Shown here in pieces: positions 1 to 13,900 of a stretch of DNA of 64,000 nt; within the stretch, counting starts at the first letter, position 1; every line of letters begins with the position of its first letter. A model generated the notes under the pieces. It ran no database searches. It was not told the origin of the DNA and saw only the letters and a list, made by a program, of their open reading frames with translations. Source of the DNA: Actinomucor elegans (lineage: Eukaryota > Mucoromycota > Mucoromycetes > Mucorales > Mucoraceae); assembly GCA_026027325.1 (NCBI GenBank), contig JAMSLZ010000002.1:1178001-1242000 (forward strand), read 5' to 3'. The position numbers and the translations under genes are program-made.

Positions 1-2854
1 TCAAATATCATCATTATTTTGATTTACTCAACAAAATAACAAAAGAACCTTATTCAGGTAACGAAGATCATCAATTAACAATGTGTCTGAGCTGGCAAAA
101 TTAACTTAACATATCTAGGGCTTATTCTAAGCAAGAGTTGCTAATCAGATGCGACATTAGATCGAAATGGGTAGAGATCACTTCTGTTAACAATGATTGT
201 TGTTGCGCATGTCTAATCTCTATGCTGTATGAATTATAAAAAAAAATTGAAACTCGCAAATTCCCAATGAAAATTTTAAAATCCTTGCCTACAAGACCAT
301 GAGTAACATGTTCATTACTTGTATAGGACTTTTATTCCTTTTCAAATGATGCAGACTTTGTAAGCAAATAAAAAGAAGGCTTTTGAGCTAGAAAATAAAA
401 TCCCTTTTTTTTTGTGTGTCTCCCAGTGATGTAGCCTCTGATAAAAATGGCCCACAATTATTAATCTTAGTTCATTAGATAGATCACGTTTTTATTTACT
501 AATTTTTGTATATCCAAGCGTTTAGTACAGTTATTTGTTAAGTTAAATGGAGCTTAGTATTTAAAGAATCTTCGTCGCATGTTATCGTAGATGGATGATG
601 GATGGCCGATGATTTAATATCAGACAATGAATCGAATCTTCTATGTTTGACGTCCAGGTACTAAATCTTTACATCTGAAATTTCAAATAATGAATATAGA
701 AGACATGTACGTATAGTAATGTTTTTATAGATTAATATAAATTATATATAAAATGAGTTTCTTTGGGGTAGTGGTAAATTGAATAGTGAATCGCTGATAC
801 AATTAGGAAAAAGCACCAGGTTTTTGTATTTTCCTAGTAACGCCAGATGGATATCTATAATCCTAAAACTTACTGAAAGGCAAAAGAGAACACTTTATTT
901 TCACTATTTCTCAAAAAATAAGGCTATTATCTTGACTAGTTGTTTGTATATATACAATTTTCTAGATGTGAAAGTACTGTCTAAGTGGTATACTAGACTT
1001 TTTTTTTTTTTTGTTCAATCGGCTCTAGCAGCTAATGAGGTAAAAGCTTACATGTAGTGGTACTAGTAGGTATTTTAAGAATGCATCAATAGGATACATT
1101 ACAAAGCAATTGCAGGAGCCATCGATTACGGGTCGTATGTATTAGTGATAATGAGTCATATTTTTGTCTGTATCTAACCAAAAGAATGAAGACAGAGAGC
1201 CTCGGTTTGATGATAGTAATTATTACTGATCTGCGTTAGGCATATATACCCCACAAGGAGGTCACTCTTGAAGGAAAAAAAAGTAATTCTTTTAATAAGA
1301 AGCCTGCATTTATCTGCTGCAAAGCAATATAACCTTACGAAGCTATGTATCGTTTACTAACGTATGTATCTATAGTCCTTAGAGTGTTTGTAGCTTCTAA
1401 TGACTAAATTGGCTATGCAATTGCTATCCACGTGCATTTCTGGCGAAATCTGATCGACCATTGTTTGAGAATAATTCACGCGTTCAGTTAAAAGGAGCCC
1501 AATGAAGCCTTAAAAGGCAAATGTATCCAGAAAAGCTGGAATGACACTATTGTGTATTCAATGTTTGTACCCCTATAACTGCAAGCTGATCAAATGGAAA
1601 GGAGAAATTGGCTTTAACGCGACATATGACGTTTGAACCAATTAACTAACAGTTTGGCAATTAATGGACTTGCTCTTTGGTTTGGATAACGCTACGTAAA
1701 GAATAACTTTGATTGATTTCATTGACTACTAGTAATACTAAACCCAAAGATAAAGAAGGATTGCTGCCATCTTGGAATTTCACATCGTTTGGTTAAGAAA
1801 AGAGAGACATATACCCGTAGAAAATGGTATAAGTGTAATGTTTCTTCTTGGCATCTATAGCATCGTAAATCGGATCTCCTTCTTTTCTCAATAATATATA
1901 TATATATATATTTGAAAAGGGCTCAGAATCGCTGGCACTATGAAATAGTAGATAGTACTGAATTGGTTACTATTTCTGATGATGTTAGGTTTCAAATACA
2001 TCACTGGAATTTTTGGTATTTGAATTAGCTTGTATCTTTTTTAGTTATTGGCTATACGCGTAATGAATGGTATTGAAGTGCCACAACAATGACTGTCATT
2101 GTTATAATACAACTTTTAATTTTTAATTGCAACTCTTCAATCATTTCATTATATAATAAACTAGGTTCTTACCTATTCATATATCTTAATATTATAACTG
2201 TGTTTTTGAATATTAGTTGGATACCTTATTATATAATTCGTATTCACTATCTTCTCATAATTGAAATGTATACTATTCTTTTATTACACTCATGATGTTA
2301 TTCTTAATATCATTGCTCTATACTCATTATTATATTTATATTTTTTATTCATTATTACTTCAATCTCTTCTTAGTTGGATTACTTGTAAACCTGATGCTC
2401 ATTACAGAATATACGCTTTGCGTCTTGTTCTTTTGGTTTAGTTTATTTTCTGGTTAAATCACCACTGCTGTGCGTAACAACGTGTATATGAGTGGGAGTA
2501 TCAGATAAAAGTTTGATTTTAGAGATTTCGTTATGAAGCATTTGCAAAAATTCTACTTTTAATATTACTCAAGTAAGAGATTCGTCACAGTAGTCAGTCT
2601 ACTGTCGTGAGCAGAGATGTACATTTTAGTGTAGATTTATATAAAAGTGTAATTAAGAGATAAAAGATGATCTTTATTCATTTAGCGTTCTATTTGATAT
2701 TTATACTAATTAAAAGGTTACGCACAAATCTGTGTGTACCTGACACTACCTTGACTAGACAATAGTTTAAATAAAATACCTTCCATTGTAAGCTTTCCTC
2801 CAAAAAACCCACAGTTAAACATCGAAATAAAAAAAGCGAAAAAAATTGTTACTT
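1..2854. other. Gene-free left flank
   Basis: No reading frame here has codon structure, splice signals or motifs that support a gene. The stretch is AT-rich with short T and A runs and a TA microsatellite near 1890-1910. The only recognisable item is one member of a dispersed repeat at 141-178. Confidence 0.5.
141..178 (+). repeat. Dispersed AGATGC...GATC repeat, copy
   Basis: The segment reads CTAATCAGATGCGACATT and then a GATCGAAA-type block, matching a short family seen in many other non-coding stretches of the window (for example 25244-25280 and 55151-55215). Confidence 0.45.
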
Positions 2855-2936: not shown

Positions 2937-3225
2937 GGTACTCTTCTTGTTAGGTTTTAAACTTTAATTTATACGTGAAAAATAATTGCCATGTCACGTG
3001 ATATTTATTGCTTTAAAGTAGAACCTAGTTATTGTTATTAGTCTAGTGGTAAATATAGACTATTTACCTACACAAGCATAAGAATTTAGTAGTTTACTTT
3101 ATGTTATATCCGTTACTAAAGACGAAGGATATAGTTTAAAATACAAAGATAAAAGATTTAGACAGTGCGGTAAAAATTATTGTAGTAAAAATATAAGACC
3201 TATCTGAGAAACAATTTAAAAACTA

Positions 3226-3427
3226 TTGGTTTTTTCCAAACGGTTTGCGCATCAGATTTTTTTTTTTGCGCTCCGAATTTTTTTTTTTGCGTCCCCGAAT
3301 TTTTTTTTTGCGCACAAGGATTTAATTTTTTGCGTACCTAGTTTTTTTTTTTGCGCATCAGATTTTTTCAGTTTGCGCATAAGTTTTTTTTAGTTTACGT
3401 GCTTGTTCTTTTCTCAAGTTTTTTAAA
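3226..3427 (+). repeat. Left long terminal inverted repeat with phased 21-22 bp units
   Basis: The repeat matches 12295-12496 in reverse complement, differing mainly in T-run lengths and near its inner end. Internally it is built of degenerate units of the form GCG plus about six bases plus a T-run. The GCG (or ACG) cores lie at 3247, 3268, 3289, 3310, 3332, 3353, 3375 and 3397, a constant spacing of 21-22 bp. Confidence 0.92.
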
Positions 3428-3889
3428 GTAAAAATGTGTAATAATGTTCCCCATGAATACATGCATTGCTTCAACATTATTGATGAAATTCCTGAAGTTA
3501 CTGCAATGGAAGTAGAAGAAGAAGTTCAAATGGATTTGTATGAAACCACTGCCTTAGAATGGCACGAATGGCAACCAGGTGTAGATGAGAAGAAGCCTGT
3601 CAAAGAAGCTGAGCCAGACATAAAAAGGATAATGGATTTCGGTAGCTTTCAGGCTTTTCTCAAGTATTCACAAGAAACCCCTATAGCTAGTCAACAAGAG
3701 GCGACAACGAGTCAACAAGTAGTAGAAAGCAAACTAAGAACCGCCTCCAAGGCTACGACTGCTAAAAAGACTAGAGGCCCATATCGCTCTTACTCAGCCC
3801 TTCAAGTACAAGAACTGCTTGACCTTGTCATCGAACAAGGGATGTCTGCAAGACAAGCAGGACTAACTGTGGGTATTGTTGTAAGAACA

Positions 3890-3909
3890 CACTATGGCGA
3901 AAATATTGT
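3890..3909 (+). repeat. Left terminal inverted repeat of CACTA element
   Basis: Exact 20-bp match to the reverse complement of 11248-11267. It interrupts the codon series of the host transposase immediately after the ACA codon at 3887-3889. Confidence 0.95.
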
Positions 3910-5503
3910 GTGCTACCCATAATATTATGTGGTAAAACGACGATTTTATTATCATTTACCTACTAATACTATAGATTTACCTACTAATAATAATCTGCGA
4001 ACCAATGAAATTAGAGCAATTATTTTCTATGGCTGCGCAATTAACAGTGCTTTGCTCATTTATTAGTGGTTACTCCTAATATTAGTGGAAAGCAGACAAT
4101 AATGTTATGGGTTTAGTCAATATTATAACATAAATTGACAATAAGAAAGAAAAGCCTGAACTCCATTTTATTTGCAAACAATTTTTATGTATTCTTGTCT
4201 TTTGCCGATGAAAGCCAAATCTTGCAAACTTCTTATAAATGAGTACATGAAATTCTGATGCTTGTACGCAACAACATAATCCTCGTTTATTTTATTTACT
4301 AAAATGAACTCTGCTTTTCGTTTCAACGATCTTTTATGTAAATTCCTAGAAACGTTTAATTTCAACGTTTGTCAAAAATAATGTTGAACAATTGTCTTTC
4401 AAATGCGTTTATTATTCGTTGAAAAGTCTCTTATACAGGTCAGGTTGCAAAAAATTCTCTTGTAAATTACTCTTTTGGAAACAAGAACGAATCGCTAGTT
4501 CCATTTAATAAGCTGAGCACTTTCATTGCCGTGATTTAGCCTTTGGCTAATAGCTGTGTATTTAAAATGCTGAATGACATTAAGAATGAGCTGCCATTAA
4601 GTGTCTAATTTACTCAATTTTATGTTTAGTAAAATTATAGAATAAAGAAAGAAAGAAAGAAAAAAAGAAAATACATTGCGTTAAAAAAAAAGAAATACAT
4701 TGCGTAAAAAAAAAGAAATATATTGCGTAAAAAAAGAGATAAATTATTGTGTAAAAAAAAAATAGGTCAAGTAGCGATTATTAATTGCCAGTAATCTTAG
4801 TCATTATTGCTAGGCGGTTATTTAACTAGATGATTTATTGTCAAAATCATATATCCACTTCTCAAACTACAAAAAAACGCGTTCGTTTTTGGACTTTCGA
4901 GTAATTGATGATTATGATAGAATTCTTAATGACGATCGAAAGCTTCAAAAACATGCACGTTTTTTTAGGTGCTAGAAAACTACAATCGATGAACATTTTT
5001 GCTGTCTGTTGGAAAATTAATCCGCATTGCTTGATAATAAACTAATTTTACTATAAAGATAAACAAGAGCATTAATCATATTTTACATTTGGTTTTAAAG
5101 ATTAACTGGAGCAACTAAATAGTCAATTAACATTATTGAATGATGAATATAGAACTGTATAACTTGGGTTATCCTGGTTCTATATTTCTGATATTATGAA
5201 ATAATTTCTTAAACATCAGGGAAATGGGTTAAATTTTTGATTAAGAAATGTTTTTACATTCTGTTGCAAGATTGCTAATACCTTTCTCTCGAATTAATAA
5301 CATGATATATAAAAACGAGTTAAATTATCTATAGTTTATATCTACTACAGAAAGTGTAAATACCTATTTTACTTTTGCTATATTATGATGAAGTCCTTTT
5401 GGAGGGAAGCTTTATATTATTTTCGGTGGTTTAAATACATAATCAATTCAGAGAACAATTTTATTTCAAAATAAAACGCTTTTTGCTCTTGTCTTCATGC
5501 TAT
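3910..5503. other. Left non-coding arm of CACTA element with subterminal motifs
   Basis: No supportable gene. Subterminal motif copies are visible at 3913-3932 (TACCCATAATATTAT) and about 4070-4088 (CTCCTAATATTA). A short tandem array lies at 4655-4760. Confidence 0.6.
4655..4760. repeat. Four-copy 23-24 bp A-rich tandem repeat
   Basis: Units of the form ATACATTGCGT followed by an A-run and GAA repeat with ATTGCG or ATTGTG cores at 4675, 4699, 4722 and 4746. The array lies inside the CACTA element and is preceded by a GAAA microsatellite. Confidence 0.7.
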
Positions 5504-8476
5504 TTACAAACGACTTAATATGCCAGCATTTTGCTCTAGATCTTGTTTAAATATATGATGAGAGATGATCTTGAACTCTTTCTCATTAGATTCACTTGAA
5601 CGCACAAGACCTACACTGGCAACAATATCTTCAAACCGACAGACAGCGTAACTGTGTGCACCGCTACTGTGCAGCTCAACCAAAGCAATAGTCTTGTCAT
5701 ATTTGGTAGTTGCATTCTTTTTCGCTAAATCAACCAAAGCCAAATACTGTGGTCTACCATTGAATGAATGCTCGAAAAAGAAAACGATAGAACCAATGAA
5801 CCAGCTTTCACGAATGGAATTATTTCGACTATTAACAAAGGTTGGTTAATCAAAGAGGTTTTTGTTCTTGAGCTAATTACTTACTTCAAGTAGCTGGCAG
5901 TGATCATCACGTAATTGTTTCCTCGACGATATTCATTTATATGGCTTTTATACATGGTAGACGTATATACATTGCCATATGCCCAGGCACGACCAGCGAT
6001 GGAAATACTATTCAACGAATCAATTTCAGCAATATTTACACCATTTGCTTCAGTACGGCGATAGTAATGCAATAGCGCCTTCAAAAAAGTTTGAGTGGAG
6101 ACACCAAAGGGAAGAGTATCCACTGAAATATTACTAAAGGGAGCCCATAATTGTGGATCACTAGCATCACCAGAAGGGTTATTCCTGAAAGTGGATTCGC
6201 TGTATTTTCGAGGAGTGATCAGGTCAAGCTCAGTATGAACATCCCAAGTCTGGCTGTTTATATGATTACGCGTTATGAGTCTTTCCAAGATATTACCAGC
6301 GTTTGCGCCAGCATCAACCTTTGACTTGATGAGCTTTTTGTATTTTCCGATGCTTCTTTCCATTGATCGGGCGGAATATGCTCTCAACACACCTTGTTGT
6401 TTGATCATATAGACTATATGCGAAAGGTAGTGTTGAACAGGCTTGAATACACCGGAATGAATACGCTTTGCCTTGATTTCTGCCAACAAAAATTCTTGCC
6501 ATTCTTTGATATATCTTTGGAAAGTATGTAAGTAAACTAGATTTATGAGTACAAAAAAAATATATTTACCTTTCCATCAGAATAAGGTCTTCAATAGAAA
6601 GTTCCCATTTAAGAGCCAATGCGACAGCTTTTGTCAGATGAATCAATGGTTTCTTAGCGGATTCTTGAATCAATTCAGGAACGAACAAGGTGGGAATCAT
6701 ATATAAGAAAATATCAATCCAGTCAACAGCACGTTTGCCACCACTCTTGATAATTGGATCTTCCCATTTGGATGAAAAGGATGTCGGTACAGTGGCTCTA
6801 GAAGCTTCAACAAGTTTACCAATTTTGATGAGCGATAATTTTGGAATATAGAAAGTATACGGCCATTCATCAGCAGACTTCAATCGGGCATCACTCAATT
6901 CATCTTCATTGGGCTTATATCGAGTTTTTCTTGCTGCATTGTACTCTTTACCCATGTCGACTGTCAGCATATTGAATACGTGTTGAGCGATACCTTGTCC
7001 GAGAAGATGCATTTCGTCTAAACCAAAAAAAGTAGCGCCAGTAAAACTGGGAAGTATTGCAAATGGTGTTGCAGACTTGATACTGTAGCTCTATGAGGTA
7101 AAAAGAAAAAGAAATGTTAAAAACTTGTAAAGATTAATGCTGATTATAGTACTTACATTCGCTGCATCTGGGGAAATGAAATCGTTTCTGCTTCTGATCT
7201 CATTGTCGATCGTTAAAAAACAATTATGATAATCATGACGTTCAGCTTGGACACGACAAATACGGCAACCAAACGTAGCCATATGACCAATATGATTTGC
7301 AAGCTCAGCTGCAGCAGGAAGATCACCAGTAGCCATCACCAAGTTGACTTTAGCTTGACAAACAATTACACCATCCTTTTGTACAAGCATGCCTTTGGTA
7401 GACAGAGCATGAAACTCATCAATAATAGGCTTTAAAAAGGTATGCATGTACTTTGGGTAGTTTGGACCTGGCAAGATCGCCAATTGAAGCATGTATTCGT
7501 CTTGGTAGCGGTATTCTGGGGGAATGTTCATATTCAAGAGATGGATGATTGTTAACTTGTCCCCTTTATGATTCTTGCTAGTACAGAAACCATCGACAAA
7601 AAGAACCATTGCGACATCATCTTCACCGGAAAACAGAATGCTATTATCCTTAAAGTACTTGTATGCTGCACCATCAAAGTAATCTTTATATTCACCGTCA
7701 GTTGATTTATAGTTGTAGCGGTATTTCATCAAGTCTCTTGTCTTTGCATTCGCAAGCATTTGAGCGACTTGTTCACCAATAGGAAGCATCTTCATAGAGC
7801 GACGAGGTTTACCATGATCATCAAAGCGATTTTCTTTACAAGCAGGGTTTTTACATTGAATAGTCTCTATATCTTCCTTTTCAAACAGCATGCAACCATT
7901 GACGCAGACATCATGAAAATGACATTGAATATTGGTTTTTGCTTTAAGAGTACGATCCAAGGTATCAGGGAACATGAGAGTGGATGGTAGGTAACCTATA
8001 TATAATGGGAATAAAAGCTGATAAGTACTTTTTTTTTAACTCTATTTGAATAGATACATACCCAATCCATCGGTTTTACGGCTCTCTTCATTGTTTTTGA
8101 TTATGGTACGCATTAGATAGACAAGTTCTCTTTGAGCCTCTCGAGGAATACCATACGTGTCGCAAATATCTCTCAATTGGATGCTATTTAATTCCGTATT
8201 GGTGAAAAGGTTTTGATCCGAGGATTTGACGTTGTAAGCAATTGGAGTAGGCTCTATTTCAAACAAGGTATATTGTTAAATTAAAAGCTTTAGTAATATA
8301 TCTGTTAACTCACCTTGGACAGGAATGCTAGCTTCTTGCGTTTGGACGACCCTTTGTTTTCTATGATCACGATTATGGCTATAGTGATTACTCCTAGCTT
8401 TAACAGTTTTGAATGGCCTCAAACAAGTAGCGCAAGTATATTTATATGGTGTAGCAGAAGAGGAAACTTTGCCCAT
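5504..8476 (-). CDS. tnp2-family (Transposase_21) transposase, six exons
   Basis: Exons on the minus strand are 8476-8314, 8253-8062, 7995-7157, 7090-6570, 6514-5885 and 5828-5504. All five introns are GT-AG and 55-66 bp long, and the frame holds throughout, giving 889 residues. An N-terminal C2H2-type finger has C15, C18, H31 and H34 or H38. A second Cys-rich knuckle follows at about residues 143-171. The catalytic core includes D253 (LFVDGF), D343 with the following FGCRIC cysteines (362, 365), and the DEMH motif at 423-426. These match the layout of tnp2 transposases of CACTA elements, which cut and join element ends. No stop or frameshift is visible, so the enzyme may be functional. It reads opposite to the interrupted host transposase and diverges from the gene at 8882. 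Confidence 0.9.
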
Positions 8477-8881
8477 TTAAAGATAAGTAAAAACAAGTAA
8501 ATATATCGAATTAATGAATAGCGGTTTTGTTGTTTAGAAAAAGCAGGTCTTAAATACGTTTGCTTGGTCTACAATTGACAGAGTTCTCAATGGTAATTCA
8601 TTGTTTTAGGCTGTTGAATCCTTTGAACTAATCAGCTTTTCATATTACTCAGCCTTCCAGATTATTCAGATATCGAATACATTTTAATGGATCCTTATGA
8701 TTTCTAATCAAGCTAATTCCTTTCCAAGTCAGTCATACCTGTCAGTAAGCTTACTTTCCAGAAAGCTCTTTGGACATTAGTAAGGATTACTAATGGATAA
8801 ATGGTAAAGTACGCTTATAAAACAGTTAAATAGCTCAAATCATTCAATCACTTTTCTTTATAATATATTTACTTTATAGCT
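8477..8881. promoter_or_regulatory. Bidirectional promoter region inside CACTA element
   Basis: The 405-bp gap separates the two divergent genes of the element. A TATAAAA box at 8816-8822 sits 60-66 bp before the ATG at 8882. No equally clear box was found for the minus-strand transposase. Confidence 0.6.
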
Positions 8882-9964
8882 ATGTCAAACAACAACAACA
8901 ATAATTGGAGCGTCTACTTTGAGAAGATTGAACAAGAAATCTTAATCAACCGTCGTTTAATTCAAGATTTGATCCAAATATTAGCACCTCTATTTCCTCG
9001 AGAAGCTTCGAGGGTTTCATCTAACGAAGAAATTGAACAAGCACTTGACGATGGTACAATCATATCTGAAGCATGTTACTACATTCAGTTTTATTAACCT
9101 CTTAGCTTGTCATATATAGCTGAACGAGAAGCAATTGCAAATGCTTTGAATCCTAATTTACGTAGTAAACGGTCAATCCCAAAAGTGCTAGAAGAAGCAA
9201 AAGTGCGTTATCAACAAAAGGCAACCAAGACAAATGTCACCCCTTCTGCACCATTAAGGTTATATGCCCTCTTGAAACACCTCAAGTATATAAAAGGCCA
9301 ACAAAATGAACTGACCGATGATGATGTTCAACCGCAATACAATACGTTGAAATACTTGGCAAGAGATGTCTTGAAAGACATGGAAAGGGCAAATATAAAT
9401 ATTGTTGGTAAAACTTGGAGTGAAATTGGCGAAGAGGATACCAGCATTCAAGAACGTTATGCTTTGCTTTTAGAGAAACGTGCTTTAGATGTGGGCTTGC
9501 ATCTGCATCTCTGTGTAGAGATGTGGGCTGCCAAGTTACTTTTATCTGAAGCACTCAAAAACAAGAAGACTGTACGTACCAGAAGTAATTCTGCTGAAGA
9601 AGGTGAAAGTCAACAAAATCAAGAATCTGTTGAAGACAATGAGATTGAATCGTTCTTCAGGTTAGATGCTTTTTTATTTCTGTTTTTATATCTTTATTAA
9701 TATGCTTGTTATGCAAATAGTGTGGATAATCAGCATATCCTTGTTGATCGTCTAGCTACTTCTGTTGCTCCAGTTGGTCTTGCATCTCCAATTGCTAGCT
9801 TGTTGGATCTACATTCTGCTCGCTCATCAACGAAAAGAAAAGCCATTACGGTTCAACCTGACGTTGGTGAAGATGAGGAGGCTGGATCTGACAATCGTTC
9901 CAAAGAAGCGGATTCCAATAAGCGTAAACCACGCTCTAAGAAAAATACAAAAAAAACGAAATAA
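8882..9964 (+). CDS. Second gene of CACTA element, basic-tailed accessory protein
   Basis: Exons are 8882-9053, 9120-9660 and 9721-9964, with GT-AG introns of 66 and 60 bp. The frame holds and yields 318 residues. The protein begins with a short Asn run and is mostly helical in composition. A KTWSEIGEED segment near residues 155-165 vaguely recalls SANT/Myb-like folds. The tail is strongly basic and lysine-rich (KRKPRSKKNTKK), consistent with a nuclear localisation or DNA-binding tail. I do not recognise a family. CACTA elements often encode a second, DNA-binding protein that recognises subterminal repeats (TnpA of En/Spm). By position this could be an analogue, but that is inference. A TATA box lies 60 bp upstream. 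Confidence 0.78.
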
Positions 9965-11247
9965 ATATAGACGTTTTTTTATTGGTTTAAGTAGCTGACG
10001 TAGCATTTTTCTGCGGCTTTTCAGTATTAAGAAAAACTTTTTTACACCAATCTTGAGTTTCTTTCTTTTTTTTCGTTTGCTAAATTGGCACATTAAACGT
10101 AAGGTTTCTTGACATTTGTCACTCTTATTGCGCACAACACTTTAACTGAAGCTTCTGTATAATAGGAATTAACCTCAATGTCAGCTTGTAATTGTGTTTT
10201 TTTTTCCAAGCTTTCGAATATTTCCCTCGTTCTTAATGTCGTAATTATCTATAAATACGTCGTCATTCATACTGCTTATATTCTTATACTGACTTGTATT
10301 CTTAAATACTTATACCACTTCAGTAATACTTATAGCCAGTAATGCCATATAGCTTTTGAACCTTTACTATTAGTTTTAAAGCTAATAACCATTAAGTAAG
10401 TGCAATGATTACTAATCCATTAATTTCTTTGTATATTAATCTAATACTGTTATAATAGATTTAGTTGTGTATATATACAAGACGAAGACTATTAAAACTG
10501 TAGCCCAGTGAATTATAATTGATTGTGTCTGATATAGTGTTGGTAAGTCTGTAGCAATAGCGAGTTTCATTCAAGAATCTAATCATTACTTACTTTAGGA
10601 AAAGATGATTAAAATATGCTATTATACAAGCGTGGGCCATTCTTCTAAAGGTTAGTTCAAATATACTCTTAAAATATTGTTTCATCAACGATAACTGACA
10701 TTATTTATACAGTTATTTGCTTAATTCATTTACCTGTTACTTGCCAGTGGGACATAAATTCTTTTATACTTGTATGACAATAAGGTAAGTTAAATACTGT
10801 TCGTGTGTGATAGAAAGCTGGTTATTGTATATTCAGCTATTGAAGGCTAGTGTGTATTAGAGTAATATCTGTTGAAGTTATATATTATATAAATAAAAAA
10901 AATAGCAATTAAATTATTATCTGAATAACCAAAATGACTATAATATTATTAGTAGTGTATTGTGAATATATGATAGAAAACTAATAATAATATTGATTAT
11001 AAATCATCAATATGGAGGGATTAATCCATACTATTATTGACTGGAAACCACTACTATTATACAATTTACCCATAATAATATTGAAGGAAAACCCTTAATA
11101 TTATAGTATTTACCCATAATATTATCGAATAAGAGTCACTAATATTATCAACCGCCGAAAAAACACTGCCTAGAAATTGACAATAATTATTAGCAGAACT
11201 ATAGTCGATTTTACCCCTAATATTATCAACTTTTGGGCAAAAAACCG
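9965..11247. other. Right non-coding arm of CACTA element with subterminal motifs
   Basis: AT-rich with no supportable gene. Near the right end the motif (T)ACCCATAATATTAT or CTAATATTATCAA recurs around 11068, 11112, 11135 and 11212, matching copies in the left arm. Confidence 0.6.
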
Positions 11248-11267
11248 ACAATATTTTCGCCATAGTG
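11248..11267 (-). repeat. Right terminal inverted repeat of CACTA element
   Basis: Exact 20-bp inverted copy of 3890-3909, followed directly by the duplicated ACA at 11268-11270. Confidence 0.95.
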
Positions 11268-12294
11268 ACAGCCCAACATTATGTGAAAACATACAAAGAT
11301 GATGAGGAGAAGCGTTTGCCAGGTACCAAAAAAGTATCACGTCTGGGAGGGAATAATCGGAAGCTTGAGCCAAAGCATACCGACTTTCTTTGTCAATATT
11401 ATGACACTGCTGCTGCCGCTGTTTTATGGGAGGCAAGAGATGCATTACTTTCCGCTTTCCCAGACATTCAGTCGATCACCCTTTCCGGTCTTCATAAGCA
11501 TCTTGTTCAGCATGCGTCCCTCACCCTCAAGAAGTTGGATAAAATTGTTGCTGCGAGGAATTCTGAGAATACTTTAAAGCAACGAAGAGAGAGAGTATTG
11601 GAGTGGATGGGTGATAAGGAAATGAATTGGTTTGGCAACTGCGTTTTTATTGACGAAGCAGGATTTAATATGCACATCAGACGAAATTTCGGTAGATCCA
11701 AGCGGGGACTACCAGCTAAAATCGTACTTCCTTCAAACAGGGGAATTACGATCACTATAATTGGGGCAATATGCGAGAAAGGAGTTATTGACTTAACTTT
11801 GCGCAAGCCAAAGGCTGTCCAGAAGAAAGGCGCTTCCAATAAGAAGAGAAAGAGAGATGATGGTGAAGCAGCTGAAGTATCGAAGGCAAACGCAAGAATT
11901 GGTACACGAAGCGAGCACTTCTTGCAATTTATCAGTAATGTTATGGATACACTTGATGAGCATGAAATATCTGGTCGCTATCTTATCTTAGATAACGCTG
12001 CTATACACAAAGTCGCTGCTGTCCAAGAACTCATTGAAAGTCGCGGATATAAAGCTGTTTACTTGCCTCCTTACTCACCTTTCCTAAATCCAATTGAACT
12101 TTTTTGGTCGAAAGTCAAAGCTGGTGTAAAGAGAGACTGTCTCACAGCAACAGATAATTTGAGTGCTAGGATTATTGAGTCAGCAAAACAAGTTACTGTG
12201 GAAGACTGTCACAACTGGATTAAGCATTCTGTTTCATTTTTTGATAGGTGTTTGGCTCTTGAGCCAATGCTTTAGTAAATTATGTTATAAATAA

Positions 12295-12496
12295 AACTTT
12301 TAAAAATCCTGAGAAGAATAAGCACGCAAACTAGAAAACTTATGCGCAAACTGAAAAAATCTGATGCGCAAAAAAAAAAACTAGGTACGCAAAAAATTAA
12401 ATCCTTGTGCGCAAAAAAAAAATTCGGGGACGCAAAAAAAAAAATTCGGAGCGCAAAAAAAAAAATCTGATGCGCAAACCGTTTGGAAAAAACCAA
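12295..12496 (-). repeat. Right long terminal inverted repeat
   Basis: Reverse complement of 3226-3427, carrying the same series of GCG/T-run units. The two copies differ only by homopolymer length changes and a few substitutions near the inner end, for example ACGTGC on the left against GCGTGC on the right. Confidence 0.92.
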
Positions 12497-13900
12497 TATT
12501 AAAATTACTAAATATGTAGAAAATAAAATTATAAAAGCATTAGTTTTAATATTTAAAATTTAAAAAAACATTAGAAAGTTAAAATAAATTTACAAAATTA
12601 ATTATTTTTCCAATTTTTTATTAACTTCATAATTTATCTCAAAGAATGAACCCTAAAGTTTTCAATAAAAGTAACAAACAATTTTTAATTTTTTTTATAT
12701 TTTTTTTTTAATAATTTTTAAAATGGATGAATTGATTCTCTCTGTGCTGAACTAAGATCTCGCACATAATAAGTTCCGTCTTAAAGCATAATCATCATCA
12801 TAATGTACTCCATTAACAAATATATCTCAGCAACCGTCTTGTACAAACAATATAATTCTGCATCCGAGGTCTTTGAGCTACATTACATATCATTAGTAAT
12901 TTAATATATATATAAATTATAATTATTTTCATATTATTAAATTAAAATTATATAGTTTTCTTTATTTATCAAGTTGTAAGTTGCTAAAAAACTTACGACG
13001 TGCTTTTTAATCAATTTTAAAAGAAAAAAATTGTCGCACAACAGGGTTTCGATCTGGTGTGAAATATTATGAATGCGGTAAAAATTGAATAAAAAGCGAG
13101 TGAATCAGTTAGAACCGTTTTATGGGGTTTTATTGATTCAAAGTGAGTTAAGTTTTTCTATCTAGCTTGTATCTCTTGTATTTATACTTCAAAAGAAATG
13201 GTCTCTTAGTAACAATCAAAGGAAATTTTAATCTATGTTCACTCTGCATTAATTGTCTTTTCAGCGGCGATCCAAAACTCCCTCTTTTGATGAATAGTTA
13301 AATGAATCCCGTCTTTTTATATATATATCAGAGTGCTATATATGGATTTCACCACAACAAATGTATTGTTATTTTTTTGTAGAAATATTGACATAGAGAG
13401 AGTCGACAGTTTGGGGCTGATATGAGTAATCTGTACTTGTTAATAAATAAAGAGACATCAGCATTTATTAGAAAGAGTTTTAACATAATAATTCATCATA
13501 TAAAATTCAATTGTATATCGAATGGTACGAAGATATTAAATATGCTAGTAAGTTTTATAATTTATAAAATCATCCCTTGGATATATTAGTTGGTTATAAT
13601 TCTTTTTATATATAAATATAATCATAATTCAAGTGTTTTGTAATTTAATAAAATATGTTGCATGAATTGCAATCACTGTTTACAGTTTTAAATTTTTTTT
13701 TTTGTAAATCAAGTTTTTATTAACTTAAAGTCACAAATCGCGGAGAGGGGTGACATGAATATGAAATATAAAGTTGCTTGAGATATAGGGATAATAGAAT
13801 AACGTGTTTACAGCTTTAATACAAAATGTCAAATGTGACGTCGGAGGCTAAAAATCGAAGCCTCAGATAACTTTCCCATTTCTTCTAGTTCTACATTTCT

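What the first reader, a model, noticed from the sequence alone, without database searches (positions are those of the whole stretch)
3226..12496. Transposon inside a transposon, with a clean, datable insertion
A CACTA element (3890-11267) sits in the transposase gene of a Tc1/mariner-type element, flanked by ACA. The codons before 3889 and after 11271 are in the same frame with no other lesion. TA flanks the outer inverted repeats and the two 200-bp repeats are near-identical. This means the outer copy was probably intact when hit, and both insertions look recent.
Basis: partly seen in the sequence, partly recalled or inferred. Interest (0 to 1): 0.75.

Follow-up and report, generated by a model that had tools for sequence, protein, structure and literature searches.

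The report
Jumping gene nested inside another
A CACTA-type jumping gene landed very recently inside a second, different jumping gene of a fungus; nesting of this kind is ordinary, but the inserted element has about 55 almost letter-for-letter identical copies in this genome, so it is probably still jumping.

Summary
Confirmed. A 1.89-kb Tc1/mariner-like element (3226-12496, TA on both sides) carries a 7,378-bp CACTA element (3890-11267, ACA on both sides) inside its transposase gene. Nine other complete copies of the outer element in the same genome read straight across the site with a single ACA. The outer element's own empty site (left flank, one TA, right flank) occurs exactly at 6 other places, so it had itself jumped into a short repeat: a three-level nest. 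The outer copy was probably coding-competent when hit: 486 codons with no other lesion, and 8 of its 10 private substitutions are silent (P = 0.0004). Identity of the outer inverted repeats is a poor clock: one sister carries the same change at mirror positions in both. The CACTA insertion is very recent: with 3 mismatches allowed, all 55 places matching a 177-base piece match it exactly, and 20 top-ranked copies read whole show no substitution. Beyond the finding: target duplications are mixed, 4 bp in 24 and 3 bp in 15 of 50 copies; 10 of 50 lack one, by rearrangement or misassembly. Members of known kinds; an unusually fresh burst.

The parts
3213..3225 (+). Left stub (at least 13 bp, ending in TA) of the short repeat into which the outer element jumped
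   Evidence: 31-bp pattern of left flank + one TA + right flank exact at 6 other places; a pattern reaching 18 bases further left found 0
3224..3225 (.). TA target duplication of outer element, left
   Evidence: TA flanks the other copies read, except at the 5' end of L010, which lacks its first 4 bases
3226..12496 (+). Outer Tc1/mariner-like element with its insert (9,271 bp; the nine uninterrupted sisters are 1,885-1,890 bp)
3226..3387 (+). Left inverted repeat of the outer element, first 162 bases identical to the right one; 7 T-rich units of 21-22 bp, each with GCG
3434..3889 (+). Outer transposase gene, codons 1-152 (N-terminal part)
3887..3889 (.). ACA target duplication of CACTA element, left
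   Evidence: single ACA in 9 of 9 other complete copies
3890..11267 (+). CACTA element, 7,378 bp, 20-bp perfect inverted repeats, subterminal TACCCATAATA-type repeats near both ends
4663..4755 (+). Poly-A-rich 23-24-bp direct repeats in CACTA; the only differences among the 20 copies read whole are A-run lengths between 4660 and 4752
5504..8476 (-). CACTA transposase gene, six exons by inspection, 889 aa, Pfam Transposase_21 (tnp2)
   Evidence: the splicing is inferred, no RNA data
8882..9964 (+). Second CACTA gene, divergent, three exons by inspection, 318 aa, basic C-terminus; candidate subterminal-repeat binding partner (inferred)
11268..11270 (.). ACA target duplication of CACTA element, right
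11271..12275 (+). Outer transposase gene, codons 153-486 and stop, with complete DD34E triad, Pfam DDE_3
12335..12496 (+). Right inverted repeat of the outer element (162 bp identical; about 200 bp at 96%)
12497..12498 (.). TA target duplication of outer element, right
12497..12740 (+). Body of the short repeat (about 244 bp) that the outer element entered
   Evidence: 98-100% identical at 7 other listed places, each match starting exactly at the TA (only 40 of 377 candidates were scored)

Best explanation
Three layers laid down by successive insertions. A short (about 255-bp) repeat was entered at a TA by a Tc1/mariner-like element whose transposase gene was intact. A CACTA element then entered that gene after the codons for its first 152 amino acids, duplicating ACA. 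Shown: the structure, both empty sites, the order, the intact frame and the near-identity of CACTA copies. Inferred: CACTA is amplifying now or did so very recently, driven by its own transposase (Transposase_21) with a second protein that probably binds the subterminal repeats. Its insertion split the N-terminal (probably DNA-binding) part from the catalytic part of the outer transposase, so this outer copy can no longer make its own transposase; it keeps both ends and could in principle be moved by the enzyme of sister copies.
For: Nine of nine other complete outer copies read across the ACA. Outer empty site exact at 6 places, 12 within 3 mismatches, control 0. Frame open on both sides, 486 codons in all; 8 of 10 private changes silent against 24% expected, P = 3.6e-4. 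CACTA, each time with 3 mismatches allowed: 5' end (43 bp) exact at 56 of 56 places; 3' end (38 bp) at 54 of 55; interior 177 bp at 55 of 55. Transposase exon: 50 places at 313 of 313 without stop. 20 copies read whole: 0 substitutions in 147,581 bases, only A-run lengths differ. Only 1 of the 50 paired copies, the window's, has outer-element flanks.
Against: The 20 whole copies were the top-ranked of 88 candidates, so they lean towards identity, and the patterns cannot see copies with more than 3 mismatches. Five of the 55 copies do not give a full perfect exon (C3:2007, C22:684689, C7:124702, C25:191, C3:22223: contig ends, frameshifts, 93-99%), and a further copy at the start of C1, outside the 55, reads 82% with three stops. 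Consensus polishing across a repeat could flatten differences, though differences among outer copies survived in the same assembly. No reads, RNA or second strain were available.
Confidence: 0.95

Rival explanations
1. The nest is an assembly artefact: two different CACTA-bearing loci were joined within the 7.4-kb identical repeat.
For: The assembly does break at this repeat: 5 of 54 contig ends lie inside a CACTA copy (counted by hand from the end coordinates and the contig lengths; 0.6 expected, P = 3e-4), and 10 of 50 paired copies lack matching duplications.
Against: This copy has matching ACA on both sides, its two flanks are the two halves of one element in one frame, it carries private changes on both halves, and no other CACTA copy of the 50 paired ones has outer-element flanks.
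Confidence: 0.03
2. The outer copy was already a dead relic when CACTA landed.
For: It has 10 coding differences not shared with the 9 other complete copies, more than any of them; two change an amino acid (M385I, T481A).
Against: 8 of 10 are silent, no stop, no indel in the frame, complete DD34E triad; identical inverted repeats.
Confidence: 0.07
3. The identity of CACTA copies reflects homogenisation (gene conversion) among older insertions and not a recent burst.
For: Sequence exchange does occur within this genome's elements: the mirror change in L002's two inverted repeats.
Against: The 56 exact 5' ends lie on 19 of 27 contigs, mostly with intact 3-4 bp duplications (39 of 50 paired copies), and are identical to the last base of each end; the outer family keeps differences among its copies.
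Confidence: 0.07

Closest known systems
CNIRT6 of Cryptococcus neoformans (CACTA superfamily; PMC12810828, passages read)
   Same: Fungal CACTA element of about 7.5 kb with short inverted repeats (24 bp, starting CACTG); shown to be mobile
   Different: CNIRT6 gives 3-bp duplications of varied sequence and has two near-full copies in strain H99; here about 55 near-identical copies and 3- or 4-bp duplications. No direct sequence comparison was made.
En/Spm-type CACTA elements of plants (PMC4158355 and PMC8978399, passages read)
   Same: CACTA ends, subterminal repeats, two genes (transposase and a second protein)
   Different: 3-bp duplications described there; here a 3/4 mix. The second protein here has no recognised family (Pfam tried on one exon only) and 2 database hits.
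SmTRC1-type CACTA relatives of animals and fungi (PMC1636069, passages read)
   Same: Transposase_21 domain; the motif L/V/I-D-X-L/M-H named there is matched by LDEMH here, invariant in 9 of 9 aligned sequences
   Different: SmTRC1 inverted repeats start CCC and its duplications are 2 bp (7 of 14 copies); this one starts CACTA
Tc1/mariner-like elements of Mucorales (named proteins of Circinella minor, Rhizopus and Mucor, the best 54-74% identical)
   Same: DDE_3 transposase
   Different: Ends and target duplications of those relatives were not examined; here long inverted repeats made of 7 T-rich 21-22-bp units

Membership tests
CACTA (En/Spm) superfamily | Inverted repeats starting CACTA | tested here: met
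   CACTATGGCG..., 20 bp perfect; 56 5' ends and 55 3' ends in the genome by longer patterns
CACTA (En/Spm) superfamily | Transposase_21 (tnp2) transposase | tested here: met
   PF02992 1.7e-8, 34.4 bits against a cut-off of 28.6; C(2)C and LDEMH columns invariant in the alignment of 9
CACTA (En/Spm) superfamily | 3-bp target duplication | tested here: inconclusive
   3 bp at the window copy; of 50 copies 15 have 3, 24 have 4, 1 ambiguous in a T run, 10 under 3; all-3 with chance extension P = 5e-6
CACTA (En/Spm) superfamily | Subterminal repeats | tested here: met
   TACCC[AC]TAATA at element positions 25, 7178, 7222 and 7323 and nowhere else on either strand of the element
Tc1/mariner superfamily | TA target duplication | tested here: met
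   Window copy and 8 of 9 other complete copies have TA on both sides; L010 lacks its first 4 bases and the TA on that side
Tc1/mariner superfamily | DDE transposase with DD34-type spacing | tested here: met
   DDE_3 3.8e-26; 34 residues between second D and E
Tc1/mariner superfamily | Placement in a phylogenetic tree of the superfamily | not tested
   No tree was built

The most novel reading that the evidence does not exclude
A CACTA element that is transposing today in a Mucorales-like fungus, whose transposase cuts target DNA with either a 3- or a 4-base stagger (bridging the 3-bp CACTA and, as recalled, 4-bp Chapaev habits), and whose ten copies without duplications mark real chromosome rearrangements between identical copies.
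Probability: 0.2. Interest if true: 0.6.

Novelty: new member of a known kind. Interest (0 to 1): 0.36.

Why it matters
Nested transposons are common; this one is unusually well documented because both empty sites survive in the same genome. The useful part is the CACTA family: about 55 almost identical, apparently autonomous copies in 36.5 Mb (about 1.1% of the genome) make it a candidate live element in a fungal group for which none of the titles and abstract beginnings listed by my paper searches (lists capped) told of an active CACTA element. The 3/4-bp mix bears on how this kind of transposase measures its cut. The copies without duplications and the contig ends inside CACTA also warn that joins at this repeat in this assembly need checking.

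Tried and rejected
Swapped flanks: I asked whether the ten copies without duplications could be re-paired into exchanged partners. With the unpaired ends added, 11 left-right matches of 3 or more bases were found among 16 lefts and 15 rights; controls from well-paired copies average 7.6 (fraction at least as high 0.12; for 4-base matches 3 against 1.06, 0.07). So reciprocal exchange is not shown.

Age from inverted repeats: rejected, because of the mirror change in L002.

Longer left flank of the short repeat: a 49-base pattern with 3 mismatches allowed gave 0 places, so the repeat's left end seems to lie close to the TA.

First alignment of outer copies mixed orientations; only its plus-strand rows are usable and it was redone. 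In one search, too, only the 11 plus-strand CACTA copies were aligned; redone with all 20. Promoter scans, RNA-family searches and structure prediction were not run. The species could not be named: named protein relatives belong to Mucorales-type fungi.

Not done: a tree of either transposase; comparison with another strain (no relative of G000 is held here). CACTA copies other than the 20 were seen only at their ends and in the tested pieces.

Full report
Structure. The outer element runs from 3226 to 12496 with TA on both sides. Its inverted repeats are identical over 162 bases and are built of 7 T-rich units of 21-22 bp, each with GCG. Its gene starts at 3434; the frame is open to 3889 and again from 11271 to the stop at 12275. 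Read separately, the two parts give 152 and 334 codons, together as long as the 486-codon gene of sister copies, with no stop. As it stands, the interrupted gene reads only 162 amino acids from its start. The CACTA element (3890-11267) has 20-bp perfect inverted repeats, ACA on both sides, subterminal repeats at element positions 25, 7178, 7222 and 7323, and two divergent genes. One encodes a Transposase_21 protein (889 aa by inspection of splice sites, 1.7e-8), the other a 318-aa protein with only 2 database hits, one of them 99% identical over 58% and marked as encoded by the window itself.

Empty sites. The window lies in a 36.5-Mb assembly of 27 contigs. Nine other places match both outer halves at full length or all but 4 bases; all nine were read, and aligned with the two window halves they show no gap or extra base at the site. 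More places hold fragments or rearranged copies (for example L019). Flanks differ from copy to copy and begin with TA, except at the 5' end of L010. The outer element's own empty site (11 bases, TA, 18 bases) is exact at 6 places and within 3 mismatches at 12, control 0. The right flank is a 244-bp repeat, 98-100% identical at 7 other listed places, with matches starting exactly at the TA. This is a three-level nest: repeat, then Tc1/mariner-like, then CACTA.

Was the outer copy alive? Against sister L006 the window copy has 10 private coding substitutions, 8 of them silent, where 24% are expected silent (P = 3.6e-4); over all variants among the copies 14 of 18 are silent (P = 3e-6). So the differences mostly arose in lineages under selection for a working transposase, not by decay at this site. 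Five of the nine other copies are identical to each other. Inverted-repeat identity is not a safe clock: L002 has changes at 115 and 1775, mirror positions in the two repeats, shared by no other complete copy, so the repeats can copy one another.

How recent is CACTA? With 3 mismatches allowed, the 43-base 5' end is exact at 56 of 56 places, the 38-base 3' end at 54 of 55, and a 177-base interior piece at 55 of 55. The bare 20-base inverted repeat has 154 places within 3 mismatches (control 9); only the first 100 were listed, all exact, so further, perhaps diverged, ends exist that I did not examine. Fifty places give the exon at 313 of 313 residues without a stop; the five other copies are imperfect (contig ends, frameshifts, 93-99%), and a further one at the start of C1, with an exact 3' end, reads 82% with three stops. 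Twenty copies read whole, the top-ranked of 88 candidates, have no substitution in 147,581 bases and differ only in five A-run columns. For these 20 the upper 95% limit is about 2e-5 substitutions per site; with recalled fungal rates of 1e-9 to 1e-8 per site and year this means at most some thousands to twenty thousand years. The subset is biased towards identity, so this is a rough bound.

Target duplications. Ends were paired into 50 copies; one search shows that two more (C6:816320, C11:464788) are also closed by an exact inverted repeat. Of the 50: 4 bp in 24, 3 bp in 15, one ambiguous in a T run, 10 below 3. If all were 3 bp with chance extension, 24 of 39 has P = 5e-6; since 15 stop at 3, they are not all 4. 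Passages seen give 3 bp for CACTA in plants and for CNIRT6, 2 bp for SmTRC1, and 2 or 3 bp for PlavakaB; KDZ2 and KDZ3 vary from 4 to 8, so mixed lengths as such are not unheard of. The ten without duplications may be rearrangements or misjoins: 5 of 54 contig ends (starts of C1, C3, C25, ends of C8, C13; counted by hand) lie inside CACTA copies (0.6 expected), so misjoins are likely for some; re-pairing did not beat controls. The window copy is not among them.

Mechanism. Ordinary cut and paste for both elements, inferred from their families. The CACTA insert separates the N-terminal part of the outer transposase from its DD34E core, so this copy depends on sister enzymes if it is to move; no second composite was found among the 50 paired CACTA copies.

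Known or new. Both elements meet the tested marks of their superfamilies, except that the duplication length of CACTA is mixed. The CACTA transposase is at most 47% identical to the 8 database proteins found; the outer transposase is found at 100% in one JGI contig (P0011) and at 78% or less otherwise among the 120 rows shown of 306. New members of known kinds.

Noticed in passing
G000, many contigs: Two more CACTA-like families share this genome: one about 71% identical in protein (7 places with one and the same score) and one 36% identical, at 49 places with exactly the same score, which suggests a second recent burst (127 of 223 candidates were scored).
   Followed up: no
G000 C1, C5, C7, C12, C16, C22: Ten of 50 paired CACTA copies lack matching target duplications; five contig ends lie inside CACTA copies.
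   Followed up: partly
G000 C16:182751, C25:1825958, C27:1543827: Three copies share a length of 7,401 bp, about one 23-24-bp repeat unit longer than the rest, perhaps a length variant that was itself copied; seven others are 7,833 to 12,236 bp or 6,600 bp and may carry inserts or deletions.
   Followed up: no
L002, outer-copy positions 115 and 1775: The same change at mirror positions in both inverted repeats: sequence exchange between the repeats of one element.
   Followed up: partly
L010 (C21:1527783-1529667): An outer copy with an open 486-codon gene that lacks the first 4 bases and the TA at its 5' end; perhaps stuck in place.
   Followed up: partly
window 2603-2752, 2855-2936, 3097-3178, 13063-13357: A cluster of high-copy short repeats around a tRNA-Leu gene just left of the nest and another repeat with more than 30 listed copies at about 90-93% just right of it; the outer copy at C10 and the rearranged one at C8 also lie beside some of the same repeats.
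   Followed up: partly
P0011: A protein identical to the sister outer transposase sits on a 5.88-Mb JGI contig, longer than the largest contig of G000 seen here (4,995,973 bases), so another assembly, perhaps of the same species, may carry this element.
   Followed up: no
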